A stretch of DNA of 64,000 nucleotides, from contig NC_053137.1 of the NCBI RefSeq assembly GCF_016808335.1, positions 3,742,955-3,806,954 on the forward strand. The letters are read 5' to 3'. Below the pieces are notes generated by a model. The model was given only the letters and a program-made list of their open reading frames with translations, ran no database searches and was not told the DNA's origin. The translations under genes were made by a program, and so were the position numbers. Below, piece by piece: positions 15,776 to 49,315 of the stretch (positions are counted from its first letter, which is position 1; each line of letters opens with the position of its first letter). This DNA is from Panicum virgatum. Lineage: Eukaryota; Streptophyta; Magnoliopsida; Poales; Poaceae.

Positions 15776-17140
15776 TGAAAGGATCTTAAGATGCCTAGAG
15801 GGGGGGTGAATAGGCAATCTGCAATTTAAAACACTTAACAAAAATGTCAGACGCAGACTATCCCGGATACTCCGGGTATATGCCCGGATACTCCGGGTTT
15901 GGTGGTCCGGAGTATCCGGAGCTATATCCGGAGTCTCCGGGTTTGAATGACCTGAAACGAAACTGCAAGAATCTCTGTAAGAAAAGTAGATCGAGTTAGA
16001 GACTGAGTACCAGGGGTTCCTTAAGGCTGATATCCAAGAAACAAAGTTAACTAGAAACTCGTGAGTGAGTAGATCGAGCTCAAACCCTAGAAATGAAGTC
16101 TCACAAGCAAATGACAATGAAACCAAGTAAACTAACACAAAGGAGACAAGGATTTGTTTCCCGAAGTTCACACCCGAAGGTTCTACGTCTCCATTGAGGA
16201 AGGATTCGAGAGACGGTGCTCAAGAACCCCTATGCTCCTCTTCCAAGGGCGAGATCACCTCTCAAGCCCAAGATTACTTACTATGGATTCCTCGGCGAGG
16301 AATGGAGATTACAAACTTCTTGTGCAGCTCACAATCTTGGTTGAGCAACCACAAGCACGCCTAGCCGTCTAGGAGCACAAGGCTCCAAGAGTAACAAACT
16401 TGAATCCGCGAGCTTGATCAAAACCAAGTGCTCAAGAGATGGAAATGAGGCTCACTAGCACTAATCCTTGCTCTTGCTTGCTTCTCACTCAAATCCCTCA
16501 AGGGAATCACTCAAGAATGGAGAAGGGAGAGTGAGAGAGCTCCTTTTGGCTTAAGTTTGAGTTCTGTTCGTCAAAGTGGCAAGAGAGGGGGCTGAAGGGG
16601 TATGGAGGGGGTATTTATAGTCTTCAGCCCAAAAATAGCCATTGGGCGAAAGGGTACCCGGAGACTCCGGGTATATGCCCGGAGACTCCAGGCAACCCTG
16701 ACTTTTCAGCCCGGAAACAGCACCCGGACACTCCGGGCAATGGGGTCCGGAGTATCCGGCCCTATACCCGGAGTATCCGGGCCTATACCCGGAGTATCCG
16801 GGTAAGACAGGGAGAAACTTCGGTTTATGGCTCTTTTGAGTTGTTTTGTGGCTCACAATCGTTTGTATAGGTTCTCTTGAGCACAAGATCTAAGTCGAAA
16901 CCCTTGAACCAAGTCCCTCTTGATAGTACGGCGTTCCTATACTCAAATTTCAAATTCAAAATCTAATTTCTTGAGTAAACTTGAACTCCGCTTTTTCATT
17001 TCCTTTTTGAGGGTCGTATATCGTCACTTGATTCACCTATACATGTTCACCACCTGCACACATGCTCAATTACACGATTAAATGCACATGTGTTTTGTCA
17101 TTAACCACCAAAACCCACTTAGGGGCCTAGATCACTTTCA
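15776..17140 (-). repeat. Copia 3' LTR (left)
   Basis: 1365 bp, beginning TGAAAGGATCTTAAG and ending GATCACTTTCA. It contains CCGGA-N3-TCCGG dyads at about 15863-15942 and 16656-16802. It carries one more copy of a roughly 22-bp dyad unit near 16760-16800 than the other LTR. Confidence 0.93.
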
Positions 17141-17157
17141 ATCTCCCCTTTTTGGTG
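17141..17157 (-). other. Polypurine tract
   Basis: Just inside the 3' LTR the minus strand reads AAAAAGGGGAGAT, a purine run where plus-strand DNA synthesis of the element would be primed. Confidence 0.8.
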
Positions 17158-17796
17158 ATTGATGACAACTCACATGTAACTCATTTGATAATCATAAAGC
17201 AATAAACATCTAGCATATAAGAGCTCCCCCTAAAAGTATGCCATGAATTTTGAATTTCAATTTTTACTTGACATGTCAACAATTGGCATATATGTTGAGA
17301 GAAACACACAAGCTCTTATAAGTTTGACAGTGGGGTGAACAGGTGAGTGCCAAGAATATGTGTGATGCATATGACAAGTTATCCACTCAATAAAATGTGT
17401 ATCTGTCAGCTGGACCCGGAGACTCCGGGTATAGGTCCGGAGATTCCGGATAAGGAGTCCGGAGAATCCGGCCTGTAGCCCGGAGTATCCGGCCCTTCTG
17501 AGCCAGAACACAGAAAGACAGAAAACAGATAATCCACAGCTCAAATATGTCACACACTAGCAGAAATTTCTTAGAAATAACTCAAGTTCGACAGCTAAGC
17601 ACAGAGTAGCACGCATTACAAGGATTCTCACACCACATAGTCCTTACAAATGATCAAGAGAGTTTAAAAATGGAATGGAAACGACATAAGTTCGATACAA
17701 AGGCGACACATGCCCAAATGAGTACATAAATGACATTTTCACTCCCCCTTTGTCATCAAGTGCCAAAAAGGGAATGAAAAGAAGCATGAATTCCAT

Positions 17797-19512
17797 CTAC
17801 TCATCATCTTCATCTTGGGCGGCATCCTCGGAGGTATCCTCATCTTCATCGGAGTCGGGGTGCTCACGATAGCCTAAGGGCTCATCTTCTTCGGTCTCCT
17901 CTTCCTCATCAAAGATCTCTTGGCCACTTGGAGGAGCACGGCGGGAGGAAGAAGAAGTATGGCGACGAGGAGAACGGGGCTGACGACGAGCACGTGGAAG
18001 TGGAGCATGAGTTGCGGCAATAGAAGCCTCATCGGCGGCATCCCACTCAGCAAATGGATCATCAAAGTCCGGGAGCTCACGATGAGGATCCAAAGGAAGT
18101 CCCAAATGACCCCGAATCTCATTGATGGACCTTGTGTTCTCATGCACATCATTTGCAATATTCCTACACATCCCAAATAAGCTACGGAGGGCCCTCTTTA
18201 CAAAGGAGTCATGATGACGGTGACGAGATGATGAAGAGGCACCCACAGAAGATGGAGCAGGATCATGTCTTGGGTTCCTTGTTGCAACGGCATGAGCTGG
18301 AGGAGGAGGTGGTGCATCACCTGAGCGGGCACGCAAGTGAAGAGGCTCATGCTTAACTGTCTTTGGAAATGTGACCTTGGTCACCCTCTCTATCATATAC
18401 ATGATGTAAGGTGCAGCAGGAAGGGACTTCTTGGCCTCAATCATAGTCCTTCTTAGCTCATTCCAAATGAAGTCCATAATGCAAAACGGTCTACCACTTG
18501 GCAAAGTCCGGGCTAGAAGATTCACTGCATAGTATCTAAGTGCCACGGGATCACCATCCTTTGCATCAATGGTTGCTCTAAAGAATTGATTCATTGCATA
18601 ATAAATCGGCAAGAGATGATTTGCCTTTCCTTCTTGAGCACAATAAGGATTGTAGAACAAGGTGGGTACTTGATATGTCTTGAGTTGCTCCTCAACATGA
18701 ATGGGATCTCTCTTCTCATCCTTAGTGCCAAGTCCAAGAATCCTAGAGAAGGTCATGTAATCCACTCCATATTTTGCTCCTTCAGTGGTCCAATAAAATG
18801 CAATCTCATTTTCATCATAATATAAAGAAGAATGAAATTGAGCAAGGATCTCTTCATTCCAATCATAGCGAAAACCCATAATATCATAGAGACCCATGTC
18901 CTTGCACTTTGCCATAGCCTCATTAAAGAATGGATCCTTCATATTCTCATAGTATTTTCAATCCACGTACTTGCAATGAACAATGGGAGCACGAGACTTA
19001 CGCATCACAACTGAAGAATAGAAGTCTTCGTGAAGCTTGCACCAAAAGCGCCGCTCAAAACCTTCACTCTTGTCATATCTATAATATTTTTCTTTGCGTG
19101 CCTCCCTAAGTGCCACATCTTGCTTGTAATAGTTTCTTTCCATCTCTACTGTGAAACCAGGCACTATCCCAGGACGATGAAGTCTTGGAATGTTAGGATA
19201 AGTGCGCTGCCCGAGAGGGTACTCAACTACCAAGCGAGGGGGTGTCTTAGGACATATGTCACGAGCAATACCCTTGCTTGTCGGTGTCGGACGGGATGGA
19301 GGAGCCGCGGATTGGCTTTGCAAAATGTAAGGAGCTTTCCTTGGCTCCTTAGAACTGCTCCCAGCGGGTTCCTTCCCGGCATGATGACGTGGACGCAACT
19401 CCCTTGGAGGATTTCGAGGGGCATCTTCCCTTTGAGTGTGAGGATCATGACGCCTCTTTTGTCTTCTTTGTTCCGCGTCCTCCAAGGACTCACCAGCGCG
19501 TGGCCTCACCAT
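17797..19512 (-). pseudogene. Extra 3' ORF of the Sirevirus-type element
   Basis: A frame in two pieces: from a Met at 19512 to a TGA at 18958-18960, then onward in the same frame to 17797. It lies downstream of RNase H, where Sireviruses carry their envelope-like ORF. The first part is basic and proline-rich, the middle resembles a domain seen in many plant transposon-encoded proteins (aromatic-rich, around 18942-18400), and the C terminus is strongly acidic. I see no convincing transmembrane helix, so an envelope role is not supported by sequence alone. The single in-frame stop breaks it. Confidence 0.7.
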
Positions 19513-20415
19513 GCCTAAGTAGATAACAAGGATCAAGACCAAGCTGGATAGAATTTGGAAGAAAAAAGATGTGCTGGTGGTGATCAAGTCCGGAGACTCC
19601 GGGTATATCCCCGGAGACTCCGGCCCAGAGGGTCCGGAGTATCCGGGTGTATATCCGGAGTATCCGGACAAGAGCGCCTGAAACCCTAAGTTTCAAGTAT
19701 CTAAGAATTTGACCATGGGATTTGAATGAAACTTGAGGAAAAGGTTCCTACACATGCTAGGAAGGGATGCCTTAAAGATTTTTCAGAGAAACCTACGACA
19801 TTGGGAGATTGGGCGATCCGAAGTTCAAAAGTACCTTTGAGACCGTTGAGAGCGTGGGAACTTCAAATCCGAGACTTCCCGGAGTTTCCGGAGGGGAGGA
19901 GAGTCTTCCTTCAAAGATTTACGAGTTCTTGATGCTTGGAAGAGTGAAATCGCCCCTAGGGCGTGAGTGGGAGAGTAGAGAGGAGAGGGGGCGGCGGCTG
20001 TGGTAAAAGGAGTGAAGGTAACCGTTTACCCCGACCCCCCCCCCCCCGCGGTATATATAGTAAAAACCAGATATCCGGAGTATCCGGCCCCAGGGCTGGA
20101 GTATCCGGATAGTCCGGAGTTTCCGGGCCCTGGGCCGGAGACTCCGGCTCCCCCTGAGACTGAGCAGAAAGAGGTTCAAAAGAACTTGATCTAGATGGAT
20201 TTGGCTAAGATAGATTTTGTAGATCTAATGGTGTGAGAGAAATTACTCAACTTGAGATCAGCCAACAATCAATCAATGGAAACAATGATCTCAAGTGAGT
20301 AAAGTGAAGAACCAAGCTTTTTATAAACACAAAAACACCCATTTTTTGAAAGTTTTCAAGATCTTTTCATTTTGATAATCACTTAATCTATGATCACTCA
20401 AGTGTATGCAGTAAT

Positions 20416-21585
20416 TCAAGCTAGGTTACGAGAATCCAAGATGTTTAGTTCACTTCTCAAAGCACAAAACCTTGACTCATCTAGAGGTTTAGTAAAGATA
20501 TCGGCAAGTTGCACGTCGGTGATTACATGTTGTAAAGCAATATCTCCCTTAGCCTCATGATCCCTTAAGAAGTGATGACGAATGTCTATGTGTTTTGTTC
20601 GGGAGTGTTGTACCGGGTTGTTTGCTAATTTGATTGCACTCTCATTGTCACAAAATAGAGGAATTGCATCAAAATGACAACCAAAGTCACTCAACGTTTG
20701 TCTCATCCACAAAAGTTGTGCACAACACGCACCGGCGGTGACATATTCGGCCTCCGCCGTGGACAAGGCAACCGAATTTTGCTTCTTAGAGCTCCAAGCT
20801 ACTAAGGACCGGCCAAGGAATTGACAAGTCCCCGTAGTGCTCTTTCGATCCACTTTGCAACCGGCATAATCCGAATCGGAATAGCCAAGTAAATCGAAAG
20901 ATGAGCCCTTGGGATACCATAAACCAAGGTTAGGAGTGAAGACCAAATATCTTAGGATTCTCTTAACCGCCATCAAATGACATTCTTTCGGATTAGCTTG
21001 AAATCTTGCACACATGCACACACTAAGCATAATATCGGGCCTAGATGCACAAAGGTAAAGAAGTGATCCAATCATGGAGCGATATACCTTTTGATCCACG
21101 GCCTTGCCATCTTCATTGAGATCAAGATGCCCATTGGTTGGCATGGGAGTTGTGATGGGCTTGGCATTTTCCATGTCAAACTTCTTGAGCATATCCTTGA
21201 TGTATTTGGTTTGACTAATGAAAGTGCCATCCTTGAGTTGCTTGATTTGAAATCCGAGGAAGAAGGTCAACTCACCCATCATGGACATCTCAAATCTCTT
21301 TGTCATAATCCTACTAAAATCATCGCACCAAGTTTTGTTAGTAGAGCCAAATATAATGTCATCGACATATATTTGGCACACAAAGATATCTTTATCAACT
21401 TTGCGAGTGAAAAGAGTAGGATCGGCTTTGCCTATTTCAAAGACTTTTCTTAAGAGAAAGTCCTTAAGGCATTCATACCATGCTCTAGGGGCTTGCTTGA
21501 GCCCATAGAGCGCCTTATGGAGCAAGTAGACGTGGTTTGGGAATTTTGGATCTTCAAAGCCCGGTGGTTGCTCAACATATACCAA
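20416..21585 (-). pseudogene. Copia reverse transcriptase (C part) and RNase H
   Basis: The frame contains the reverse transcriptase catalytic block YVDDIIFG, the upstream [15 protein letters not shown] block, and an RNase H with the DSDYAG and STAEAEYV motifs and the terminal KHIDIRHHFLRD and DIFTKPL words of Copia elements. It overlaps the preceding reverse transcriptase frame in a different phase, so a 1-bp deletion near 21610 splits the gene. Confidence 0.9.
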
Positions 21586-22409
21586 TTCGGAGATTGGTCC
21601 ATTAAGGAAGCACTCTTCACGTCTATTTGATAGAGCTTGAAATCATGGTGAGTAGCATAGGCAAGCAAAATACGAATTGATTCAAGCCTAGCAACGGGAG
21701 CATAAGTCTCACCAAAATCCAAACCTTCGATTTGTGTGTAGCCTTGAGCAACCAACCTTGCTTTGTTTCTTGTCACCATGCCATGTTCATCTTGTTTATT
21801 TCGAAAGACCCATTTGGTTCCAATGATATTTTGCTTGGGTCTTTCTACTAAGTACCAGACTTCATTCCGAGTGAAGTTGTTTAATTCCTTTTGCATAGCC
21901 ATCACCCAATCCGGATCATCCAATGCTTCTTCCACCTTAAGAGGTTCCAACGAAGAAACAAACGAGTAATGTTCACAAAAAGTAGCCAAACGAGATCGAG
22001 TGGTTACCCCTTTACTTATACTTCCAAGGATATTATCCACGGGATGATCCTTTTGAATTATGTGATGAACTCTTGGATGTGGAAAGGAGGATTGATGTTG
22101 GATTGGTTCAGCTTCTCTATCATCTTGAGACTGATCTTGATGTTGGATTGATGCCTCAGTTTGAGTAGCCCGGATACTCCGGTCAAGATGTCCGGAGTCT
22201 CCGGCTTCATATCTGGAGTTTTCGGATTTTGCAGCGGATGTAGAGGTAGATGACCCTTGAAACATCAACTCATCATCATTGTCCACTTGTTCTTGAGGCT
22301 TTATTTCACCAATCGCCAACTTCTTGATAGCTTGACTTGATGATTCTTCCATTCCTACAACATTATTAACTTGCTCCCTTTGAGAGCCATTAGATTCATC
22401 AAATGTCAC
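21450..22409 (-). pseudogene. Copia integrase-RT linker and RT N part
   Basis: The frame starts in the linker after integrase and includes the [11 protein letters not shown] and [11 protein letters not shown] blocks and the [13 protein letters not shown] word of Copia reverse transcriptase. It goes out of frame just after the DVKSA block. Between 22165 and 22225 the linker contains CCGGA-N3-TCCGG dyads identical in type to those in the LTRs. Confidence 0.88.
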
Positions 22410-22711
22410 GTCACATGCTATTTCAACACAACCGGAGGTTTTGTTGAAACACGATAGCCATGAGCATTTGAGGCATAACCAAGAAGAAAACCTTCATCAA
22501 CTTTAGGTGCAAACTTAGAGTTCTTGGGCTTCTTGTTAAGAATGAAGCACTTACTTCCAAAAACTCTAAAGTAAGACACATTAGGCTTTTTACCAAGTAG
22601 GAGCTCGTATGCCTGTCTTGTTCAAGATCTTGTGAAGATATAGGCGGTTGATTGCATGACATGCCGTGTTGATTGCTTCCGCTCCAAAATTGATCCGAGA
22701 TCTTGTACTCA

Positions 22712-23410
22712 TCAAGCATTGTTCTTGCAGGCCTCGATGAGAGTTCTATTTTTCCTCTCAACAATTCCATTTTGTTGAGGAGTGTATGGAACCGAAAATT
22801 CATGACCAATGCCCTCATCATCTAGAAACTCTTCTACATTAGTGTTCTTGAATTCGGTGCCGTTGTCACTTCTCACTTTCTTGATCTTAGTCTCAAATTC
22901 ATTTTGAGCTCTTTTTGCAAACTTCTCGAAAGTCTCTTGCACTACACTTTTGTCATGCAAAAAGAATACCCAAGTGAAACGAGAATAATCATCAACAATA
23001 ACAAGACCATATTTGTTACCACCAATGCTAATGTACGCCACCGGGCCAAAGAGATCCATATGTAGAAGTTCAAATGGCTTGACGGTGATGACGATGCTCT
23101 TTGATGGATGTGGAACACCAACTTGCTTCCCGGCTTGGCATGCACTACATACACGATCTTTCTCAAAAGAAACATTTGTTAGTCCTAGGATGTGATCCCC
23201 CTTTAGAAGCTTGTTGAGATTTCTCATCCCAACATGAGCTAGTCGGCGATGCCATAACCAACCCAAGCTAGACTTTGCTATCAAGCAAGCATCAAGTTGA
23301 GCCCTCTCTTGAGAAAAATCCACAAGATAGAGCTTTCCCTTGAGCACCCCCTTGAAAGCAATGGAGTCATCGCTTCTTCTAATGACGGTTACACCCTCGT
23401 TAGTGAACAA
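22712..23410 (-). pseudogene. Copia integrase
   Basis: It contains the HHCC zinc-binding region (WHRRLAHVG, then CSACQAGK), and the catalytic core with LLHMDLFGP, DDYSRFTWVFFL, SDNGTEF and the YTPQQNGIVERKNRT block that includes the third acidic residue. The frame shifts near 22710-22740. The last 100 codons of integrase continue in other phases down to about 22423. Confidence 0.9.
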
Positions 23411-23422
23411 ACAATTGAAGCC

Positions 23423-23647
23423 CTAATCACAAAGTTGTGAGATGGACAACAAATTGTAACCAAGTGACTCAACTAAAAGAACTTTTGAGAGAGTGAACTT
23501 TGAGTTTAGATTAATGTTACCGGTACCGAGCACTCTTCCCTTTTGATTTCCCACAAAGGTAATGAAATAATCTCCACTTGATGCGGTTATTGTTTCAAAC
23601 ATACTCCTTTCTCCGGTCATATGATTTGTGCAACCACTATCAATCAC
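23423..23647 (-). pseudogene. Copia protease
   Basis: An aspartic protease segment with the IDSGCTNHMTG active-site block (DSG) and the NLLSISQLCD end that precedes integrase in Copia polyproteins. An in-frame TAG at 23423-23425 separates it from integrase, and a frameshift lies between it and the preceding gag frame near 23650-23690. Confidence 0.85.
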
Positions 23648-23687
23648 CCAAGTTGATCCACCGGAGGAGTATCCCTACAAAACAAAG

Positions 23688-25268
23688 TTACTCTTTTCTT
23701 TTAGGTACCCAACAATACTTGGGTCCTTTAATGTTAGTCACAAGAACTTTGGGCACCCATACATGGTTTTTCACTTTTGTGTTCCATATACGGTGTCCTA
23801 CAAATTTGGCAACCACTTTACCATGGTGGTTCCTTATCATTACATAATCGGCATAGAAGGATACATGAGATGATTCTTGTGCCTTGATCTTAGTTGGGTT
23901 ATAGGCCTTGAACTTATCTTCCTTGAATGAGGATGCAACAATCTTAGCACCCTCATCACATGTTGTGCCTCTCTTGATGAAATTGACATGATCACTTTCT
24001 TGAATTGCATCATTTGTCTTGTGAATGAGAGTGGTCATGTTCACTAGACCTCCTTGAGCACCCAAGGCGGTCTTGTTCTTGTTCTTGGTAAATGGAATGG
24101 CATGTGGGGTACCTTGCCCATTCCTACCAAGTCCCTTACCCACTTCAAACCCAAACTTGCTCATGTATCTTGACCCAAACCCCTTGGTGTGTTTCTCAAA
24201 TTCACCTACCCTTGTAAAGGGAATTTTCTTTGGGACTTGAGTATGTGATGGAGCCTCTTCTTGCAACAAGTGAGTGAGTCTAGAGATTTCTTTCTTCATT
24301 GCATTCATCTCAACATGGTTAGTAGCACGAGTTTGAATATCAATATTAAAGCACCGTGCACATCCATTACTTGTAGAAGGACTAAATGAATTAGATGTCT
24401 CTTTATTCTTAGAAGTACTTTCCCAAAGAGTATTAAATTGAACCTCAAGTGCCGTGTGATTAGCTTGTAAGCTTGTCATGCTCTCTTGAAGTTTCTCATT
24501 ATCCTTCCTTAGGAAAGTGTTAGTGTCATTGACAAAAGAAAATTTTCTAGTCAAATCATCCACTTTTTCTTTTTCACTAGAGAGTGACTCTTTCAACTCA
24601 AGAAGAGTGACATCCTTGACTTTGATTGAGTTCACAAGCATCTTGTTTTCCTCCCTTTCATAGGCGAGGTCCTTTTCAAGAGCCTTGAATTTTTCTCTCT
24701 CAAGTCTAAGCAATTCTTCTTGTGTTTCAAGAGTCTCATCCGCTTCATATAGTTTCATAACTAATTTCATCATTTTAGTTGCGGCACCTTTACCATATTT
24801 CTTGACTAGTTTAGCAACTTCTACTTCATTATCCAATTCATCATCCGATGTGTTTGGAGATGTTACCTTGGAGTTTTTAGCCATGAGGCACATGATAGGA
24901 GCTTCATCTTCATCGTCGGTGAGATCTTCAAACAAGCTTGGAGGATGTGGAGATGATGCCTTGAAAGCCATGGTTGCAACATCTTCTTTCTCGGACTCAC
25001 TTTCTTGTTGTGAATCCCATTCTTGACCAAGATGAGCTTCTCCGGCTTGCTTCTTGTATCTTGATCTATCTCTCTTGGATGTGTTTTCTTTGGTGTCTTT
25101 GTTCTTCTTCTTTTCTTCCGGGCAATCGGCAATGAAATGCCCAACTTTGTTACACCCAAAACACGGCCTATTAGACCTTCTTCTTGGCTCATACTTCTTG
25201 TTCTTTCTAAAGTTTCTAAAGTTGCCTCTCTTCAATACTCTTGTGAAGTTCTTGATAAAGAAAGCCAT
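23688..25268 (-). pseudogene. Copia gag C part with zinc knuckle and coiled coil
   Basis: A CCHC zinc knuckle (CFGCNKVGHFIADC) lies near the start, at about 25175-25130, followed by a Lys/Glu-rich stretch and then a long predicted coiled coil (residues about 165-270). The region after the knuckle is unusually long, as in Sireviruses. It is in the same frame as the preceding gag ORF, from which it is separated only by a TAA at 25326-25328. Confidence 0.82.
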
Positions 25269-25325
25269 TTGCTCATCATTAAGCTCTTCATCATCATCAC
25301 TACTAGTGCCTTCAATTTTTGAGGA

Positions 25326-26420
25326 TTAGTTTGCCTTTTCTTTGCCTTTTGACTTAGCTTGAAGTGCCAACCCACTATTCTTGGCCGCTTGTTCTTGAAG
25401 CTCGGCTAGATCTTGATTAATCTTGACTCTCTTTAATTGATCATGGTGAGCCTCAATTCTTCCAAGGACATTCTTGGCGGTGAAGTGCTTGAATCCTCTT
25501 TCGGCTCTAATCAAGCTAGGTAGAGTAACATCCCTAGCCATATACACGGTCAAGAGCTTGTCCACAATCTCACGGTCACCCCACTTGTCACCACCAAGAG
25601 ATTTGATTTGATTTGTGATTTTCTTCATGCGGTTGTACATCTCTTTCACACCTTCATCCTTCTTCATGGAGAACAAGCTCAATTCATCTTCTAAAGTTTT
25701 GATTCTTGATTCTCGTACTTTCCTTGATCCTTGATGGTTCACTAGGAGAGTGTCCCAAGCATCTTTGGCGGTTGGTGCATCCTCTATCTTGTCAAACTCT
25801 TCGGGACTCACGGTTGTGTGTAGGATGTTCAATGCTTGAAAATTCCGTTGTAGCACATATGCTTGAACCGGGGTTGGAGTTTCATCTTCATCCGGAATTT
25901 CACATCCAACTTCCACAACTTTCCAAAGATCCTTGTGAATTGCATTCATGTAACCGAACATCTTAGTCTTCCATTGATTATATCCGGTACCATCAAAGAA
26001 AGGTGGCTTGCCCATATGAATTGATGCATTGTGCTCACTAGGTAGAGAAAAAGTGTAATCATGAGCAACTCTTCGATAATCACCTTTACCTTTTAACTTT
26101 GATGAGCTGCCCTTGTTTGAAGAGCGTGAGGCTCTTCTCTTGGAATCGGTGTCGGAGTCATCACTAGAGTCAATGATAACTCGGGAACTAGTCTTTTTCT
26201 TCCTTTGCTCCTTCTTCTTTTTCCTCCATGCCTTCCACTCCTCATAAGACATCTCATCATCGGACGTCTCTTCTTCACTTTCTACTCCGCCATTCTTATT
26301 CTTTCCCTTCTTGTTGTTGTTGGATGGCTCTACATTCTTGTCTTTGTCTCTTTTGTCACTAGGATAACCTTTTTCACCTTCATTAACCGGAATCTCTTGA
26401 TTCTTTTCATCATCCGACAT
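25326..26420 (-). pseudogene. Copia gag N part
   Basis: A 364-codon frame starting 57 nt inside the PBS. It begins with an acidic/basic low-complexity region and then contains the UBN2-type gag domain (FFDGTGYNQWKTKMFGYM, then the DAPTAKDAWDTL and MYNRMKKITNQIKSLG blocks). It stops at a single in-frame TAA before the zinc-knuckle part. Confidence 0.88.
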
Positions 26421-26463
26421 CTTGACCTCTCCGGACGGTTAAGCCCTTTGAGTGGAGAGCCAA

Positions 26464-26475
26464 GCTCTGATACCA
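26464..26475 (-). other. Primer binding site (initiator tRNA-Met)
   Basis: Two bases inside the 5' LTR the minus strand reads TGGTATCAGAGC, the standard complement to the 3' end of initiator tRNA-Met used by Copia elements. Confidence 0.95.
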
Positions 26476-26477
26476 AT

Positions 26478-27820
26478 TGAAAGGATCTTAAGATGCCTAG
26501 AGGGGGGGTGAATAGTCAATCTGCAATTTAAAACACTTAACAAAAATGTCAGACGCAGATTATCCCGGATACTCCGGGTATATGCCCGGATACTCCAGGT
26601 TTGGTGGTCCGGAGTATCCGGAGCTATATCCGGAGTCTCCGGGTTTGAATGACCTGAAACGAAACTGCAAGAATCTCTGTAAGAAAAGTAGATTGAGTTA
26701 GAGACTGAGTACCAGGGGTTCCTTAAGGTTGATATCCAACAAACAAAGTTCACTAGAAACTCGTGAGTGAGTAGATCGAGCTCAAACCCTAGAAATGAAG
26801 TCTCACAAGCAAATGACAATGAAACCAAGTAAACTAACACAAAGGAGACAAGGATTTGTTTCCCGAAGTTCACACCCGAAGGTGCTACGTCTCCGTTGAG
26901 GAAGGATTCGAGAGACGGTGCTCAAGAACCCCTATGCTCCTCTTCCAAGGGCGAGATCACCTCTCAAGCCCAAGGTCACTTACTATGGATTCTTCGGCGA
27001 GGAATGGAGATTACAAACTTCTTGTGCAGCTCACAATCTTGGTTGAGCAATCACAAGCACGCCTAGCCGTCTAGGAGCACAAGGCTCCAAGAGTAACAAA
27101 CTTGAATCCGCGAGCTTGACCAAAACCAAGTGCTCAAGAGATGGAAATGAGGCTCACTAGCACTAATCCTTGCTCTTGCTTGCTTCTCACTCAAATTCCT
27201 CAAGGGAATCACTCAAGAATGGAGAAGGGAGAGTGAGAGAGCTCTTTTTGGCTTAGGTTTGAGTTTTGTTCGTCAAAGTGGCAAGAGGGGGGCTGAAGGG
27301 GTACGGAGGGGGTATTTATAGTCTTCAGCCCAAAAATAGCCGTTGAACGAAAGGGTACCCGGAGACTCCGGGTATATGCCCGGAGACTCCGGGCAACCCT
27401 GACTTTTCAGCCCGGAAACAGCACCCGGACACTCCGGGCAATGGGGTCCGGAGTATCCGGCCCTATACCCAGAGTATTCGGGTAAGGCAGGGAGAAACTT
27501 CGGTTTATGGCTCTTTTGAGTTGTTTTGTGGCTCACAATCGTTTGTATAGGTTCTCTTGAGCACAAGATCTAAGTCGAAACCCTTGAACCAAGTCCCTTT
27601 TGATAGTACGGCGTTTCTATACTCAAATTTCAAATTCAAAATCTAATTTCTTGAGTAAACTTGAACTCCGCTTTTTCATTTCCTTTTTGAGGGTCGTATA
27701 TCGTCACTTGATTCACCTATACATGTTCACCACCTGCACACATGCTCAATTACACGATTAAATGCACATGTGTTTTGTCATTAACCACCAAAACCCACTT
27801 AGGGGCCTAGATCACTTTCA
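26478..27820 (-). repeat. Copia 5' LTR (right)
   Basis: 1343 bp, same termini as the left LTR. Dyad clusters lie at about 26566-26642 and 27357-27481. Relative to the other LTR I count roughly 28 substitutions by eye and one repeat-unit deletion. Confidence 0.93.
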
Positions 27821-29106: not shown

Positions 29107-29193
29107 GGGGTGGTGGCGCAGTTGGCTAGCGCGTAGGTCTCATAGCTAAAGCGAGTGATCCTGAGGTCGAGAGTTCGAGCCTCTCTCACCCCA
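29107..29193 (+). tRNA. tRNA-Met (elongator, CAT) with intron
   Basis: 87 nt. The acceptor GGGGTGG pairs with TCACCCC, the D arm is GCGCAGTTGGCTAGCGC, the anticodon loop CTCATA is followed by an intron of about 13 nt and then ATCCTGA, and the T arm is GAGAG-TTCGAGC-CTCTC. Plant elongator tRNA-Met genes normally carry such an intron. All conserved positions are intact. Confidence 0.95.
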
Positions 29194-29455
29194 ATTATTT
29201 TAGGTTTTTTATGAAACATTTTTTTTGGTTCGCCATGTTCTCTGTCTTTTCCACCCTTTTTTCGACTTTCACGTTTTTTTACCAAAAAGGGGGGGTTTGT
29301 TTTGCCTTTTTCAGAGCAAACAACGAGCACATAGGAGTAGGTCTCAGGATCCACATGTACCTCTACCACCTCTGTCTCGGTGGAGCACGCTCACATCCAT
29401 CAACGCATGACAGATCTCTTTGGGGCTCCAGAAACATCTGATTAAGGTGGATCAA

Positions 29456-31927
29456 TGTAAGACCTGCCTCGCGGACAGTCCGCGCGGGATCGGCGGACAG
29501 TCCGCCAGGCATCGACCAGATATTTATCTGAATGGATGTGAGACCCACTTGCCATTCCTCTCTTCCTCCTCACTTCGTCCAGAGCCGAGCGGAGCGCGAG
29601 CGCGAGCGCCGTCGTCGCCCCTTCCGTCGATCTCCCTCCTCCGGCCACCAAACTTCGATCCCTCGCGCAAGAACCTTCCTCGGCACCTTCTCCACCTTCT
29701 CAAACCCCCAGTCCGGCTTCTCCCCGGCCGGAATTGCCCCCGCCACCGCCGGACACCATTAGAGGTGCTTGAAGCCTTGCCCCCACCGTCGATTCGCCTC
29801 TCCGGTCGTCCTCCGCTCGAACCGACCGCGGGAATGGATTCGTGGTGAGTTCCTCGTGCTTCCCGGTCTTTTTCCCTTCCGTGGTGTGTCGCCGGCGCCG
29901 GTGAGCGGCCGCCGCCGTCGCCGCCGCACTTGCTGCCGCCTGTGGCGCGGGTCAAAATTTAGGTATCGCGGACGGTCCGCCTGTGAGGTGCGGACAGTCC
30001 GCCGGTCAGATTAAGGTTGTCCAGAGACGATGTCTCTGGTGGGGGTTCGCAGGATTGAACTGCGGACGGTCCGCCACTTGGGCGCGGACAGTCCGCAGTA
30101 GAGTCTAGGATTTTGTCCAGAGACGTTGACGTCTCTGGTGGATTGAATACGTGAACTGCGGATGGTCCGCCAAGGGTGGCCGGATAGTCCGCAGATAGAA
30201 TTGGAAATTGTTCCGGAGATGTTGTTGTCTCTGGTGGGTCGGTAGAATAGTACGGCGGACGGTCCGCCACTTGGGCGCGGACAGTCCGCAGGGCATTCCA
30301 GTTAAAGTAAAATAGTTACATCATTGAGTTGCACTCATTTATTTCATATGCATACGTGTAGCATCCGCAGCTGAGGGCGCCGTATTCGAGGTGATTGCGG
30401 CATCGCAGGAGCAGCCGGCGCAAGCACAGGAGGAGAGGTATGAGCACCCTCCACAAGGCCCGTCTGACCCCAGTTCTGTGCAGCAGCCCGAAGGCAAGCC
30501 CCGGTGCACATCCTATTAATTTAAATTATGACACCTATATATATGTATTTATTACTTATGCATTACGTGTAGGAGTTGTTTGAAACCCTAGTTGCATGAA
30601 CCCTAGGTGTCCTTGAGTTGTACTAGTATGTATAGGACGTTAGCAATGCTATGCTAGATAGGGTTCGGTAGAAGACGAGTAATTCTTGGTTACTCACGAG
30701 ATATAGGATAGTTTTATATTTCCAGATTTGAGTTACTAATTTTTTGGTGGAAGTCTTGAAATGAAAGAAAGATTAGGACTCGAGACCGGGCGGGAGAAGT
30801 GTAGTTCCGCCTGTGTCGGTTAAGGACTGAGCCGTTGTTGGCCCTGCTGATCATGTTTGAACTATACTAACCGCATACCGGGAGTAAGAGGTAGTCGAAA
30901 CCGGTAAGCCGAGTACTGCCTTGCTTCGAAAGTACAGGAACCCTCACCCAACTCCTGGGGTAGTCGAGTAGTCGCGGAGAAATGGAGATGCATTGTTTAC
31001 TTTTGGTGGTCTCACGTTGAGCTCGGCTGACCATATGTCGTTGGGCTGGTTCCTGTAGTTCAAGGCGGGGAGGGGAATGGTTGGCATGTATAGTCCGACG
31101 GGGCAAATACGTGCCGTGTTGGTTAGGTCCACCTTGCAAGGTTAAATCGAATCGATTCGCCGTCAGTCGCTCTCGGATATGAGCACCTTGGTCACTGCGT
31201 CGCAGCGTAGTTTTGTGTTGGAGAAAAATGGTTATACCCATATTGATGAACATATGAAATATTATTTATTGTTACATTATGTTTGCTCTAGATTTGGTTA
31301 TGCAAATATTAGACTATGTTAATTTATATAGAACTTGGGCTAAAATAAGGAAAGTGAGGAATAATTTTAGTCGCTGTTTTCTGCAAAATAACTACTAGCC
31401 AAAAGTCTTGCATGTCTAGATATGTGAGCTAAGTTATACTCACTGGTCGGGTAAGCCTTGCTGAGTATTAGTATACTTAGGGTTTGTTGCCACAATTATT
31501 TCAGGTCACGCAGACGTAGACTTCTGTCCCTGCTGCGCCAAGTTCATCCGCCGGGATGCAGAGGAATGGGAGATTGTGGAGCCGGACGTTTAGTTAAGGA
31601 TCTTCTTAGGGCACACTTTTGGTAGTTGTAGCCCCTTTCCTCTAGTTGACCCGGAATTCCAGTAATGCAAAGTTTGTAAATTATGTATTTATTCAAGCTT
31701 GGTTTGTAAAACTTAAGGTAAAGCCTTATGTATATTCATTGTATTTTCAAATTGTGCCGTTCTTATACCATCTGCGCCCACCTTCGCGTGGGACTATCGG
31801 TGATGTTTCGATCGGGACGTGGGTTGAGAAAGGATCGTCAAATTAAGCCGTTAAGCTAATGAGCCCGATGTGTTCAAATGACGGTCATTACGTTTAATTA
31901 GAGTTTTAATTTGGCGATTCTGTCACA
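29456..31927. mobile_element. Solo LTR (2.47 kb)
   Basis: It starts TGTAAGACC and ends TTCTGTCACA (TG...CA) and is flanked by a perfect 5-bp duplication ATCAA (29451-29455 and 31928-31932). No PBS, PPT or coding domain lies inside, which fits a solo LTR left by recombination. Between 29474 and 30291 it has about ten copies of GCGGA-N3-TCCGC dyads. The length and composition suggest a large Gypsy-type LTR, but the superfamily cannot be proven without an internal region. Confidence 0.8.
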
Positions 31928-31932
31928 ATCAA

Positions 31933-33451
31933 GCAAGGATCTGTTGCTACATTACATCCATCCCAGTACCTCCTGCCCTTTTCTGTATGCTACTGCAGCT
32001 AATCTGTCCAAGCCGCCCCTCTTGCGTAATGGCTCCTACATCAGGCTACTCCCTGTACTGTAGTACTTGAGGAGCCGCGCGGTAGAAGGAAATTAAAGAC
32101 GTGATATGAACAAATTAGCCACTGTTAGCAGATTCTGCAAATTTTGGCATTCCGCTTCTGGGCCCAACACCAACGGAGCTAAAACTATAAGGCACACGGT
32201 TTGAGCCGGACGGTCAGAGCATCAGATCAATAGGGTCGATCGATGCCTCTAGTTGGTGGCATTCCGTTGGTGATCATAGTAGACATTCGACGCTCTTGCC
32301 GCGTAATTTGGGGACGGATGGACGGTGATCTGTGCGTTTTGTAGTGGCATTGTAATACAGTGCATACACCTACTTGGTCAGTTTTAGCTCTGCCGTGTCT
32401 AGACTTCAGACAGTTTTCTGACATAAATTAATAATTAAAAAATAATTGCTTAGTTAATATCAAAGGGGTGGAGGCGCAGTTGGCTAGCACGTAGGTCTCA
32501 TAGCTAAATTGAGTAATCCTGAGGTAGAGAATTCGAACCTCTCTCACCCCATAATTTTTTTTCCTTTTCCGTCTGTTTGATTTGATAGTTTGGTTAGCTT
32601 AATTAATAGCTTGTGTTTTTAACCAAACTCTGACAAAATGGTTGCTTCAGAAGACATACCAAATAAATTTTCCTTTCTTTGGGAAAGGAAACATGAACGA
32701 ATCAATTTTTTTAGTAGAAGCAAATGTTTAATTTCATCCTTGCTTTAGACCAAGAATAGACGATAACTCTCCCACCCCGAATTTCAGGCCCTTCATCCAT
32801 CGGCATTTTAGCTTCATGTTTTTGCAAAACAACGAGGGCGCTTCTTCGCAATGCAAGAACCCTGGGGTGGAGCACAAGTGCAGAACCACGTCCCCTTAAA
32901 GGAACACGATCAGTACTAGACTCCAAAAATATACCACTGCAGAGGTCGATCATGCAAGGATTTTTCTATCGCAGCCTGTTCACTACCAATATCCCAGTAA
33001 CATGTATCCCCCCGTTTGCTTAGCTGAAACCACTGGGATTCACTGTCCTAAAATGGATACCACATCTGCAACAACAAAAGTACAGAAATACTCAGATATT
33101 CCTTCATTACAAACAGACATTTGGAATGCACATTAGCTATTATAGATAGGTAATGGGAATTGCTTTCACATTAGTTTCACCATCTACGAGTACTTTGAGC
33201 AGCACAGCAAAGTCCACCTCCAGACTAACTCATCCACACGATATAGCCAACACACCACAAAAGGCAAGGGACCCCGTTAAAGGCTTAAAGCCATCGGCAC
33301 AGCCTGCTACGGCATTCCAAACTATAGAGTTCAGTTTACTGCTTTGCATCTGCATCTCTTCACTACATTCAGTTGCCACCAGTACCCGAGTCATAGCAAA
33401 ATATTTATGACAAGGACTTGTCCATGACATTCTTGTCTGTAATCGTGCAAG
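31933..33451. other. Intergenic and 3' flank of F-box gene
   Basis: Apart from the tRNA-Met pseudogene I see no gene. The part from about 33100 to 33451 is likely the 3' untranslated region of the minus-strand F-box gene. Confidence 0.4.
32465..32551 (+). pseudogene. Decayed tRNA-Met copy
   Basis: 87 nt, colinear with the tRNA-Met at 29107 including the intron position. Changes in the T arm give GAGAA-TTCGAAC-CTCTC, so the conserved 53-61 G-C pair becomes A-C. The D stem also changes (GCGC to GCAC side). Box B is weakened. Flanks are unrelated to the first copy. It is probably a pseudogene; a functional variant is less likely. Confidence 0.75.
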
Positions 33452-36400
33452 TCATATAACTCTAAACTTCACGGTAGATGGAATCTCATGGGGCAAGTGT
33501 GTCAAAGCCACCCCCCTCGCATAATTGCACCTCGTGGCATCTTCAGACTTCTCCCTCTTCCATTTGCTGAAGCCTTTGTACTTGTGTGGATGTGTGTCAA
33601 TAACCAGTTTCTTCAGCATTGGTGACCTCTTTAGCAGAAAGGACTTGAGACCCATCAATTCCGGTTCCCCGCTAAACCCTCCGATATAGATACTGCGGAG
33701 CCTTCTAAAGGTACATTTCTTGGGCCATATAACTTTCTGCTTCCTCGGTGGCTGCAGATTCCCATAAACCTGCAAATAAATAAACCAGCATAAGAGAGTA
33801 AAACGCTGACAAAAAAATGACCAGACAGGTAGCTTGAAAAAGATTCAGAAACTATGATGTGTTGTTTACAAGCTATGGCATACTTACGATGAAACTAGCA
33901 GAATACGAACATTTTCAGGGCCTGGATCTGCTCTTTCCCCATACTCTTAGAGACCACCAAATTTTGTACGAAAGATATGCTGTTTAAAGGTGGAATTATA
34001 TTTGCCCCCCCCCCCCCCCCCAAAAAAAAAACCAGATAATATAAACCATCATGGGACTCAGAATTTTTCTCTCTCCAAATCTGGCAGTTTTGACCCAGTC
34101 AATTAGCAAGCGCAACTTATATACCTGAAGAACAAGTATTTCAACTAGGGGGGCAGCTTTAAGGAGATAAGCCACCGAACAGATGCTCGTTTTCCAAGAT
34201 GTCAAGAGACACAGCACGATCTTCTTCAAACCAGCAAATATTTTACTGTGTTGCAGTACACGAGATACCTGAAGGTAGCACCAAAAAAAGAGAAAAATAG
34301 AAAGGAAATGACGAATTCAGCAACAATACAAATTCTAGAGATGTCACAAACAGAACTCTTACATACCTGTAAACATGTGGGAAACTGTAAGGTCAGTGAT
34401 CTGAGCTTATGGAGAGCACCCAAGAAGTCTAAAGGGCATTCATTATTCTTCACAAAAAAAACATGAAGTCTGTGAAGAATTGGTGCACATTCATACTCAA
34501 TATCTACCTTATGACCCTTGTATGAGAAACACTCCAGCCTTTCAGCATGAATGCTAATACTAATTAAGCTCTTACAATTACGAACTTCCAGATACACCAA
34601 TTCTGCATGAGAGGTTCTCATAGTAATCAACTGATGGCATCTTTGCAGGCTAAAGTGGTGGAGAGCACGACAACTGGACATAATATTCAGAACAACTGAA
34701 TCAACCACTGATACACGGTGAAGTGAAAGGCAATGTAGATAAGAAAAGCCACTGAGTTTTGCAGACACTGATTCTAAACTGCACATGGATAGAAGCAATA
34801 TGCGCAATTGGCAACCTCTCAAATCAACAAAATGCTTCAAAGGGAAGCTGTATCGCTCTGCATCTGGTGTGGCAATAATGCCATGATGGCCAGAAAGGAT
34901 AAGGTTAAGTGTTCTTGAACCAGATGCAGCTGTGAATGCAACCCAGCGATCAAGGTCCGAAGCATGGGACGAGGATAATGGGAAGTTGACTTCGACTTTC
35001 TTGATTCCATTACCATTATGATGGCGCAAAACTTCATTTACTTTAGTCACAAACTTTGTAGCTTCTTGATTCCAGAAATCAGGATTTTCGTTATTATTTG
35101 TATTTTCTGGCATTTGCATTCCAAAAGTATGCACGTCAAGGATGAGACGGTCAACGTTTTTCCAGAGGTGTCTCCATCTGGTGGACAGACAAGCAGTAAC
35201 TGCAGCCTCCTTTACTGTCATTAGCGAAAGAATTTTGATCAAAATGTCATCTGGTAGTGTGCTGATCCTGTCATGATTCTGCAGAAGAAACAGCAATTAA
35301 AATAAGTAAAGCATTTCAGAAACTGCATATTCCATTTCTTTTTAAAAAAGGAGGCACTTAACTTTTAAAATAAGTACAATGCCTAGATGAATAACAAAAG
35401 AAAATCTTCCTTGAACAAATACACATGGGGGATTGGTAAACTTTTCTTCAGTTTGCATAATACTTCAAGATTGATCTTAAAACCAATCAGCAAGTGAAAG
35501 CAAAACGTCAGGAAAATCTTTTCATCTCCAACTACCATTAGATTGCTGTTATTTAGATCAGGGTTTTTTGGTTCATGCCTAATTACAAACCCGGACACTG
35601 TATAATAAAATTTGGCATCCATGAGCTTTGAACCAAACCTCTAATGCCATTGGAAACCTTTATATATTGAAATTACTATAACCTTTCTGGTACTATGCTT
35701 CTATGCCAGCGAATCTGTCAAGATTAATATCAATGCACAGTTCTTGTGAGAAGGAAAATGATGCATTGAAACAATTAAATTCATATTTATGGCAACAAAA
35801 TGCCTACATCGCTTAAATAATCTGATTAACCCAATGGTTGAACCTTCCAACCCTCTCCATATCTCATCAAAACCATTAACTCCTAGGATTCTCTCTACAT
35901 AAAGCGTGAAGTGAAACTTTATTGCTTATCTATAAATATCCTGTCACCCAGCATTACTTTGAAGTATTGAATGAGCATAATTGTTCCTTCTATGAAACAT
36001 CTAACAAAATAACTACAAAGGAATTTCTTGTCGAAATATATAAAAAAATAATGTACTATAGGAAAAAGAAACACACTGCATTAGAATGATAGAAATGCAC
36101 TTATTAAAGCTATAATAAAATATAAGAAAATCTACCTGCACAGGTTGCTGGACACTGCACCAAGTCTTCCTCTTCTTTGGTGGGATGCAGTCATCTAAAC
36201 AGAAATAAAAAAAAATGCTGAGTTGCACAGCTAGGTGAATCAATTATTTTCTGAAACACAGGTGACTCAATTGTGTTCTAGCTGTTCCATGTTAAGGTCA
36301 ATGCAATTAAAGGGGAAATGTTGATTTGAGGCATTATGCCCTTCAAATGCTAAGGCAAGGAACAAGAAGACTTTTGACTTCATTTTCTCCCATCTACTTG

Positions 36401-43909: not shown

Positions 43910-45440
43910 GTTCACCTTCATGCTTGAGGCTTAATGCTATTGGGTTCTAACATCACGGGGTGGTGTACAAGGCATCTGAAGAAGAGTCCCAAATAACCCA
44001 GATTATTGACTCAGTGCATTTTTCAGAAATTTTAATGTCTGGTGGAGCAGAATGTTCAGACTATGAAGTGTGTGGTGTTAATACTACCAGAAGCAATGCA
44101 AGCAGTCGGCAATTCATAAACAGTCCTTGCGGACCCTTGGTCATAAGCTGCAAGATGTACTGTTCTTCATAGGTTTGCAGCACCGGCAATAATGGCCTTT
44201 GCAGTAATCTTCTGAAAATGCACGCATTGCTGGTAGCTACACAAAAGTATATACATCTTATGGAGTCAGTGGCCAGCTTGCTTCTATCTTAGAACGTCAA
44301 GAGATGGCAAACAAAAGATAAGTCCGAATTAACCCACTAATTATACACCCAAAATTAGCATGGACATCAGGACGTGCTAATGCTTATGAGAAGTTGTTTT
44401 GCTCCCAAAGATATGCATTCTAGTACAGTAACCAGCATGTAAAATCAGTGTACATTGTATGGTGATAAGGAAATTTTGGAGGTTTACTGCACTGGAGAAC
44501 ATTCCTATATTGAAAATTCATCTTTTTTTTACACCTCTTGTATGGTTTTTTTTTACACCTCGTGTATGGGTAGAGCTACAGTTTGTATTCATATACATAC
44601 ATACACCATCGCTACACACGCATCCACTCACACCTAATGCACTCAATTAGATCTTAAGTTCACCGGAACCATCATGATTCTGTAGGCAGCTGGTGCATTG
44701 CATTCCTGTTATGGCTTGACATGAGAAGCAGCTTACATTATTTGAGGGTTCGGTCTGTCCACCCAAGCCACTGGCTCGTTCTCAACATCCTTTTGATTCA
44801 CTGGATTTTATTCTGAATCTTTTGGTCCTTCAAGTCATCTAAGGCCTTGGAAAGAAGTCTGAATTGTCATATCCAAGTGGTACTATCAGCCACGTCAGTG
44901 TACTAATATGTATGACGTATTAATGGGCACATCTTAAAATTAGTCAAGAATTTAGAACTAGAACATGACAGATTGAATACGTGAAATATGTATCCTACCA
45001 CAGACCACACAAAAGCATCAGTGTGCATTGCATTTCACCAGCTCAGTGCCTTGATACACCATTACCACAAAAGAGCACTGGGTGCCCATTCGCGTATGAA
45101 CAGTCCCAACTGGTACGCAGAAGAAAGAGGCACATTTTATCGCGTATGCATAATTTTTTTTTCAAAGCTATTACGTATGCATAATAGCTGTACACAGGGA
45201 GGCATTTTCCACATTAGTGTCACTAATAAACACTTCAGCACAACAGTAATCCATCCACGAAGAGATGTCCGCATCACAAATTAAAGCAAACTACCAGCTA
45301 CAGGATATTTCTTCACTAATTGCGGCTAGTACCAAAGTCATTGCAAACTGGTTTCTCACAACATGTCATAACATGCTCAAAATGCCCTACTTCATAGATA
45401 ATTGGTAACGACCGTGACATTCTTATCAACAGCACGACAG
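43910..45440. other. 3' flanks of MIP3 and the second F-box copy
   Basis: The part to about 44450 is probably MIP3 3' UTR. A small tandem duplication (two copies of a T-run plus ACACCTCTTGTATGG-like sequence) lies at 44521-44570. No other gene is seen. Confidence 0.4.
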
Positions 45441-48400: not shown

Positions 48401-49315
48401 GCATGTTTCTCGACATTACGCCATGTCCTCTTCTCTAGTGGAATGCAGTCATCTGGAGTAAAGTAAAAAAATACAAATGCTGAGCTGCACAGTTAGGTCA
48501 CTCAGTTGTGTTGTAGGCTTGTAGTTGTTCAGGTTAAGGTTAAAAAAACTGCAATTAAGATGTTCCCCCACTACTTTTCTACCCACAAAATATAATCAAG
48601 AGCTCACTGTTTTCATGTTGAACCACTGACGCAAAGTACTAGGAATGCATGCTGCTGCTATCTGAGTAGGAGCTGCCGTACTTCACTAAATTTGGGAATT
48701 GATATGGAAATCGATCCTTCACAGATTCTTATACGCACCTATCTTGAGTTTCCTTCTGTTTAGTTCGATCCCCACAAAAATGTGATTATGATTTCATTTT
48801 TTGAACGAAATGGCATTATGATTTATGAGGAAACATTCTATCAGCAGCTCATTGAATAAGTTCCATCCCCATATAAATGTTATCTCAAAGCTCAACTGGA
48901 ACCCACTATAGTTCCTGAACAAGAAATTTTTAATGCAAATGATATGTTGCGATTCGAAATATGGTTTCTTGTTACTCAAAACGGACCTTTTTTTAAAAAA
49001 AAAGAACTTGTCTACTGTACGTCCTGTCTCTACCCCCAAAATGTTGCTTCAATAGAAGTAAAATCAACCCCCCCCCCCCCCCCCGCCCTCTCCCTGCATC
49101 CCTCTTCCAATACCGAGCATTGCCCTGTTTAGATTAGACCAATCTTCTGGGTCGCTTAAACTCTTGGCGGAAACCCTAAGCCCCAAGAGCACCTCTCCTT
49201 ACATTTCGTTAAACCGTACTCCTATGATGCACATCTGCAAACAATGGAGGATGCGGGAAAGATCACCTGCGGATTCCGGATGCGACTGGTGCCCGGGCGG
49301 CGAACTGGAGCCCAT
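45441..49315 (-). pseudogene. F-box/FBD paralogue with one frameshift
   Basis: It has the same five-exon plan as the gene at 33452-37126: 49315-49267, 48452-48397, 47274-46347, 46248-46105, 45746-45441. Exons 1 and 4 have identical lengths in both copies and all splice sites are intact. Exon 3 holds one extra base near 46890 (just after the FILS word), so the F-box half (about 47274-46890) runs into a stop while the LRR/FBD half continues in another phase. The product as read would be a short F-box protein of about 155 aa. It could be a recent pseudogene, or a working truncated form; a sequencing error at one base is the third option. Confidence 0.85.
47941..48206. repeat. Tandem duplication within intron 2 of F-box copy 2
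   Basis: A 133-bp unit (TTGAATTTTC, then CTCACCATATCCTACTAA, then ACATAAAGCCTGAG) occurs twice in a row with about 85-90 percent identity by eye. The homologous intron of the other F-box gene has one copy (about 35830-35960). Confidence 0.8.

What the first reader, a model, noticed from the sequence alone, without database searches (positions are those of the whole stretch)
29474..30291. The unrelated solo LTR carries the same dyad plan, GCGGA-N3-TCCGC
About ten dyads, mostly GCGGACAGTCCGC or GCGGACGGTCCGC, are spread over 800 bp in pairs. The core CGGA-N3-TCCG is identical in form to the core of the Copia dyads, although LTR ends, length and remaining sequence show no similarity. Two LTR families sharing a half-site and spacer length suggests convergence on one host factor, exchange of a repeat module, or a shared need such as methylation-dependent recognition.
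Basis: partly seen in the sequence, partly recalled or inferred. Interest (0 to 1): 0.8.

Follow-up and report, generated by a model that had tools for sequence, protein, structure and literature searches.

The report
Palindrome module shared by unrelated retrotransposons
A repeated DNA module, two copies of a short mirror-symmetric box plus a hairpin-forming stretch, sits in the control regions of two otherwise unrelated groups of plant jumping genes, which suggests that one group took over the other's probable switch.

Summary
Ten CGGA-N3-TCCG dyads (nine exact GCGGA-N3-TCCGC) lie at 29471-30289, against 0.06 expected. They sit in a 2,472-bp solo LTR, 29456-31927, flanked by ATCAA. A two-LTR relative in the same genome encodes Ty3/Gypsy proteins. 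The window's Copia element is a Sirevirus, and CGG-CCG palindromes are a published Sirevirus LTR feature (PMC2829016), so that half is known.

New here: two Sirevirus-type LTR families of this genome carry the Gypsy family's whole unit: two GCGGAC-N-GTCCGC dyads 22 bp apart, usually 19-20 bp, a CCAGAGA/TCTCTGG inverted repeat, period about 97 bp. With dyads and repeat arms masked, arrays still align beyond shuffles in 8 of 12 comparisons, controls in 0 of 12. That favours an exchanged module over convergence on a half-site. GCGGACNGTCCGC occurs 25,091 times genome-wide, its reversed control 54 times.

Most likely function (inferred): sites for a dimeric host factor that activates the LTR promoter; hairpin/small-RNA targeting is the main rival. 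Limits: the Sirevirus-type families were identified by LTR signatures only, and the genome search answered once, so family proportions are local.

The parts
29456..31927 (+). Solo LTR, Ty3/Gypsy family A, 2,472 bp, TG...CA
   Evidence: TG/CA ends with a 5-bp duplication; matches the LTRs of a two-LTR Gypsy copy (L034/L035) from LTR base 15 to its last base, 77-83% in pieces (ends; proteins)
29451..29455 (.). Target-site duplication ATCAA, left
31928..31932 (.). Target-site duplication ATCAA, right
29471..29505 (+). Head dyad pair GCGGACAGTCCGC-N9-GCGGACAGTCCGC, LTR +16 to +50
   Evidence: a pair at the same place in the heads of L034, L035 and L026
29517..29530 (+). TATA-like CAGATATTTATCTG, 11 bp after the head dyad pair
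   Evidence: sequence; CAGATATTTA kept in three other LTR heads; promoter function inferred
29968..30002 (+). Dyad pair 2 (N3 = CGG, CAG)
30021..30039 (+). CCAGAGA...TCTCTGG inverted repeat 1 (loop 5)
30062..30096 (+). Dyad pair 3 (CGG, CAG)
30117..30138 (+). CCAGAGA...TCTCTGG inverted repeat 2 (loop 8)
30158..30192 (+). Dyad pair 4 (TGG, TAG; second dyad CCGGATAGTCCGC)
30213..30234 (+). Degenerate CCAGAGA-type inverted repeat 3
   Evidence: sequence
30255..30289 (+). Dyad pair 5 (CGG, CAG)
30016..30305 (+). Three tandem units of about 97 bp
   Evidence: dyad columns 72 of 78 identical in pairwise comparison, other columns 121 of 208
15776..27820 (-). Copia element of Sirevirus type (comparison): LTRs about 15776-17140 and 26478-27820, 31 CGGA-N3-TCCG dyads

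Best explanation
The dyads belong to a composite cis-regulatory module of about 97 bp: dyad, 9-bp linker, dyad, usually 19-20 bp, CCAGAGA/TCTCTGG inverted repeat, about 24 bp. It is tandemly repeated in LTRs of a Ty3/Gypsy family and of two Sirevirus-type families of one plant genome. The module is shared by descent, most simply because LTR arrays were exchanged between the superfamilies (template switching in a shared particle, or recombination between copies). Shown: sequence, architecture, Gypsy identity of family A, LTR signatures of B and C, and spacer similarity with dyads and repeat arms masked. Inferred: the dyads are fixed half-sites bound by a dimeric host protein, two dyads about two helical turns apart, activating the LTR promoter. 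In families B and C and in the window Sirevirus dyads end 38-54 bp before a TATA box; in the Gypsy LTR one pair ends 11 bp before a TATA-like box. Direction of transfer is not settled.
For: Gypsy identity: the C1:4090708-4101234 element (L034/L035) has LTRs 94-95% alike, duplication GTTGG and PBS TGGTATCAGAGC, and RVP_2, RVT_1, RNase H, Integrase_H2C2 and SH3_Tf2-1 in Gypsy order. Families B and C: an arm matching the window Sirevirus's PPT-side inverted repeat starts at LTR +23 to +32 in 5 of 5 heads (0 to 5 of 500 shuffles reach it) but in 0 of 3 Gypsy heads; CTATA(A/T)ATA follows the last dyad by 45-54 bp in 5 of 5 copies and a poly-C signal lies 20 bp from the LTR end in 5 of 5, as published for Sireviruses (PMC2829016: passages of sections 8 and 11, section 13). 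Shared unit: dyads 22 bp apart; the repeat starts 18-20 bp after dyad 2 in 23 of the 26 units where its start was recognised. Spacer columns, A vs B+C, permutations reaching the observed value: upstream 12 nt 0/5000, linker 2/5000, 12 nt before the repeat 20/5000. Masked arrays: 8 of 12 A-B/C comparisons are reached by 3 or fewer of 300 shuffles; 0 of 12 controls stand out (lowest 45 of 200). Dyads as fixed sites: spacer 3 in 92 sites, at most 7 for any other spacer 0-12 in the fetched set; 0 of 23 two-change sites compensated; dyads 92% identical between tandem units, the rest 58%.
Against: No full-length B or C copy was seen, so their Copia identity rests on LTR signatures, and the inverted repeat is also known from some non-Sirevirus Copia elements (PMC2829016 section 8 heading). 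Spacer similarity could be an extended binding site under constraint rather than descent. Four of 12 masked comparisons do not reach the mark: 12, 27, 135 and 262 of 300. The 8 nt after dyad 2 show no similarity (681/5000 for A vs B+C), and the 12 nt before the repeat fail for A vs B alone (466/5000). In 18 of 44 units no repeat start was recognised or the piece ended, and 3 of 26 lie at 6-7 bp. There are no binding, expression or methylation data. In the Gypsy LTR eight of ten dyads lie about 440-760 bp downstream of the TATA-like box. The unit tree was midpoint-rooted and drawn without support values.
Confidence: 0.55

Rival explanations
1. The dyads and CCAGAGA repeats act as RNA: transcribed arrays fold into long hairpins, are processed into small RNAs and guide silencing. 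The array would be a host target or an element-made decoy.
For: The array folds at -176 kcal/mol, z -9.3; a window Sirevirus cluster has z -8.6. PMC10760457 recounts, citing Bousios et al. 2016, an excess of small RNAs over Sirevirus palindromes (passages). The CCAGAGA repeat keeps its arms while its loop varies from 5 to 10. In the window Sirevirus clusters central purines tend to precede pyrimidines, a foldback order (permutation p 0.013).
Against: All ten dyad centres in the solo LTR are purines on the + strand, so no two dyads pair fully. No compensated changes among 23 two-change dyads. With dyads and repeat arms held fixed, shuffling the rest folds at least as well in 112 of 150. PMC10760457 finds no obvious peak of structure in maize Ty3 elements (section 10). 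Arrays may be silencing targets and still not exist for that purpose.
Confidence: 0.2
2. Convergence: unrelated LTRs independently evolved the same dyad because one abundant host factor recognises it; the rest of the unit looks alike by constraint.
For: Half-site and spacer also recur in the window Sirevirus, whose dyads have other centres and cluster order. Published Sirevirus motifs vary around a CGG-CCG core across plants with little other similarity (PMC2829016 section 9 and Table 3).
Against: Families A, B and C share linker and flank letters and period, not just the dyad.
Confidence: 0.2
3. Selfish minisatellite: a unit that expands by slippage and recombination and spread between LTRs without function.
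For: A 21-bp length difference between the two Copia LTRs equals one dyad step; arrays differ in unit number.
Against: Tandem units of the solo LTR keep dyads at 92% while other columns fall to 58%. Between the two Copia LTRs, after insertion, dyads change no less than the rest (4 of 117 against 24 of 1,227), so I infer that the constraint acts while elements are active.
Confidence: 0.05

Closest known systems
Sirevirus LTR repeated motif (RM), CGG-CCG palindromes (Bousios et al. 2010, PMC2829016; sections 9, 10, 12, 13 and passages read)
   Same: Same core and dyad form: HOPIE CGGACCGTCCG and OPIE-2/PREM-2 CACCGGACTGTCCGGTG contain CGGAC-N-GTCCG; high copy number; CpG-rich; close to a TATA box.
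   Different: Here also in a Ty3/Gypsy LTR, in a 97-bp unit with a CCAGAGA inverted repeat. The 2010 survey compared Ty1/Copia elements and called the motif Sirevirus-specific among them.
[quoted passage not shown] section 10 and passages read)
   Same: Related palindrome shared across TE superfamilies, linked to small RNAs.
   Different: Maize Ty3 elements had no obvious structure peak there; no shared composite unit is described in the passages read.
LTR swapping between retrotransposon families (recalled; only a search listing with abstract starts was seen)
   Same: Exchange of LTR sequence between families.
   Different: Here an array inside the LTR, not the LTR, is shared, and between superfamilies.

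Membership tests
Ty3/Gypsy (family A, the solo LTR) | RT - RNase H - integrase order and Gypsy-type RT (RVT_1) in an element with these LTRs | tested here: met
   L035 ORFs between 2661 and 7082; LTR match to the window. One two-LTR copy examined
Ty3/Gypsy chromovirus (Tekay/Del) | Chromodomain at the integrase C-terminus | tested here: not met
   Only SH3_Tf2-1 found in L035 6348-7082; no chromodomain hit at E 0.01. One copy, with broken frames, examined
Sirevirus (window Copia 15776-27820) | CA/ATTGG + TATCAGAGC junction; PPT + AT/TG; poly-C integrase signal; Copia RT | tested here: met
   against
Sirevirus (window Copia) | Multiple PPT copies upstream of the 3' LTR | tested here: inconclusive
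   Two PPT-like runs in the last 759 bp before the 3' LTR
Sirevirus (families B and C) | Inverted-repeat arm about 28 bp inside the LTR; TATA after the RM cluster; poly-C signal near the LTR end | tested here: met
   3 B and 2 C copies
Sirevirus (families B and C) | Copia-type gag-pol between two such LTRs | not tested
   All five copies are solo LTRs with 5-bp duplications; the genome search did not answer again
Sirevirus (family A) | Same LTR signatures | tested here: not met
   No inverted-repeat arm in 3 of 3 heads; no run of 6 or more C in 2 of 2 LTRs
CGG-CCG repeated motif (motif class, not lineage) | At least eight palindromic CGG-CCG copies per element, clustered in the LTR | tested here: met
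   10 in the solo LTR, 31 in the Copia element

The most novel reading that the evidence does not exclude
A Ty3/Gypsy lineage took over a complete Sirevirus enhancer array (or the reverse), so that two superfamilies now answer to the same host activator and the same silencing. Exchange of cis-regulatory modules across superfamilies would then be a route by which retrotransposons acquire expression niches.
Probability: 0.5. Interest if true: 0.75.

Novelty: new variant of a known kind. Interest (0 to 1): 0.6.

Why it matters
The 2010 paper that described the Sirevirus palindromes could not name a common binding factor (PMC2829016 section 19, passage), and I found none named in what I read. A second, unrelated LTR backbone with the same unit gives a natural comparison: letters kept in both backbones mark the candidate functional site. 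It also suggests that control arrays, not only coding domains or whole LTRs, can pass between Copia and Gypsy elements.

Tried and rejected
Exact-pattern scans for the dyad pair in prokaryote and viral contigs gave 14 and 3 stretches. Compared with the window at E 0.001, only L001 and L015 of these 17 matched, over 36-41 bp at the dyads; treated as chance and not followed. Two LTR strings found nothing in viral contigs. Paper searches for N-spaced letters, LTR-end letters and LBD/LOB-domain factors gave nothing usable; an LBD/LOB-domain factor remains a recalled idea without support here. Promoter: a second TATA-like site at 30535 is a possible alternative start in the solo LTR. A tree of 43 units placed most Gypsy array units together among Sirevirus-type ones, but it was midpoint-rooted and no support values were shown. 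RNA folding as sole purpose was weakened.

Dropped from counts: the five head pairs and all pairs not exactly 22 bp apart were left out of the spacer test. Family D (L030/L031) was left unclassified and out. L041 (family A, no array) has no unit. Some family A units are from the two LTRs of one element and are not independent.

Full report
What is there. The stated region holds ten CGGA-N3-TCCG dyads in five pairs, 22 bp start to start, against 0.057 expected from first-order Markov resampling. Nine are exact GCGGA-N3-TCCGC. They lie in an LTR whose best ends are 29456 and 31927, flanked by ATCAA. The same scan listed 14 other TG/CA pairs with a duplication, so the ends were checked against a relative. 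On contig C1 (L034/L035) an element with two LTRs starts TGTAACAC, ends in GTCACA (5' LTR) or CGGCACA (3' LTR) and has a duplication GTTGG; its LTRs match the window LTR to the last base, at 82-83% over the last 1,960 bases.

Which element. Between those LTRs lie gag, protease, RT of RVT_1 type, RNase H, integrase H2C2 and SH3_Tf2-1 in Gypsy order, in several open frames that were searched apart. No chromodomain was found, so I do not file it as Tekay/Del. The Copia element of the window (15776-27820, minus strand) has Copia domains, the Sirevirus junction ATTGG-TATCAGAGC and a terminal PPT followed by AT/TG. Its TATA box lies 38 bp after a dyad cluster. Its palindromes are therefore the published Sirevirus repeated motif (PMC2829016; sections 9, 10, 12, 13 and passages read).

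How common. One genome search answered: 25,091 GCGGACNGTCCGC in 1.13 Gb, against 54 for the reversed pattern. The 50 forward places it listed, all within the first 4.72 Mb of C1, fall in nine insertions as I group them: three of Gypsy family A, three of family B, two of family C and one unclassified (D). This is a local sample selected by the motif; wider counts (CGGANNNTCCG and a four-base spacer control) were asked for and not answered.

Families B and C. Their ends (TGAAAG... and ...CACCCCCC(C)TCTAG-N18-CA) are shared between copies and flanked by 5-bp duplications in 5 of 5. They carry an arm matching the window Sirevirus's inverted repeat at LTR +23 to +32 (5 of 5 heads; 0 of 3 for Gypsy family A), a CTATA(A/T)ATA box 45-54 bp after the last dyad, and the poly-C integrase signal (5 of 5 each). 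Proteins were not seen.

A shared module. The unit in A, B and C is the same: dyad, 9 bp, dyad, 18-20 bp in 23 of 26 measured units (6-7 bp in the other three; in 18 of 44 units the repeat start was not recognised or the piece ended), CCAGAGA/TCTCTGG repeat, about 97 bp in all. Spacer columns are more alike between A and B+C than under column permutation for the 12 nt upstream (0 of 5,000), the linker (2 of 5,000) and the 12 nt before the repeat (20 of 5,000), but not for the 8 nt after dyad 2 (681 of 5,000); the 12 nt before the repeat hold for A vs C (7 of 5,000) and not for A vs B (466 of 5,000). With dyads and repeat arms masked, 8 of 12 array comparisons are reached by 3 or fewer of 300 shuffles; the other four by 12, 27, 135 and 262. 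Of 12 controls none stands out, the lowest being 45 of 200. Outside the arrays, BLAST at E 1e-5 shows no similarity of A to the B or C LTRs; the one other hit, L025 2060-2736, lies beyond the B LTR and resembles an A tail (68%).

How it may work. In the fetched set, which was chosen by the motif, spacer 3 has 92 sites and any other spacer of 0-12 at most 7. Changes within dyads are mostly C-to-T and G-to-A (50 of 92), and none of 23 two-change sites is compensated; only 3 of the 23 hit partner positions, so this test is weak. Between tandem units of the solo LTR dyads are 92% identical and other columns 58%; between the two Copia LTRs after insertion dyads change no less than other positions (4 of 117 against 24 of 1,227). 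I infer that constraint acts on active elements and on the letters, which fits a protein site. Two dyads 22 bp apart would face the same side of the helix. The CCAGAGA repeat behaves otherwise: arms kept, loop 5-10 (arms were required by the search). The array folds strongly as RNA (z -9.3), a stability fully reproduced by dyads and repeat arms alone. The first 1,000 bases of the LTR are CpG-rich (observed/expected 1.0-1.2), as in Sirevirus motif clusters (PMC2829016 section 10).

What is known and new. Known: the motif class in Sireviruses, its CpG islands and nearness to TATA (PMC2829016), and small RNAs over maize Sirevirus palindromes (PMC10760457, passages and section 10, citing a 2016 paper not held). 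New as far as the held library shows (searches; most listed papers were not opened): the array in a Ty3/Gypsy LTR and a composite unit shared with Sirevirus-type LTRs.

Noticed in passing
window 29107-29193 and 32461-32558: A tRNA gene (ARAGORN: type not settled, anticodon read as 'ca'; perhaps elongator tRNA-Met with an intron, from memory) lies left of the solo LTR, and an 89% copy of the stretch lies right of it.
   Followed up: no
window 15864-22193: In the Copia dyad clusters central purines tend to precede central pyrimidines (AATT, AATTT, AAAT, AATT, AT; exception TATA), a foldback order; permutation p 0.013, noticed after the fact.
   Followed up: partly
window 16761-16781: A 21-bp stretch present in one Copia LTR and absent in the other equals one dyad step.
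   Followed up: no
window 23688-25268 (-): Copia ORF with a G-patch domain and a weak zinc-knuckle match.
   Followed up: no
window 33450-36245 and 45439-48507: Diverged duplicate stretches at 68-75% identity; the first holds an F-box/LRR ORF at 34226-35296.
   Followed up: no
L030:9110-9923 and L031:20: A further dyad-bearing region (D) with no match to families A, B or C.
   Followed up: no
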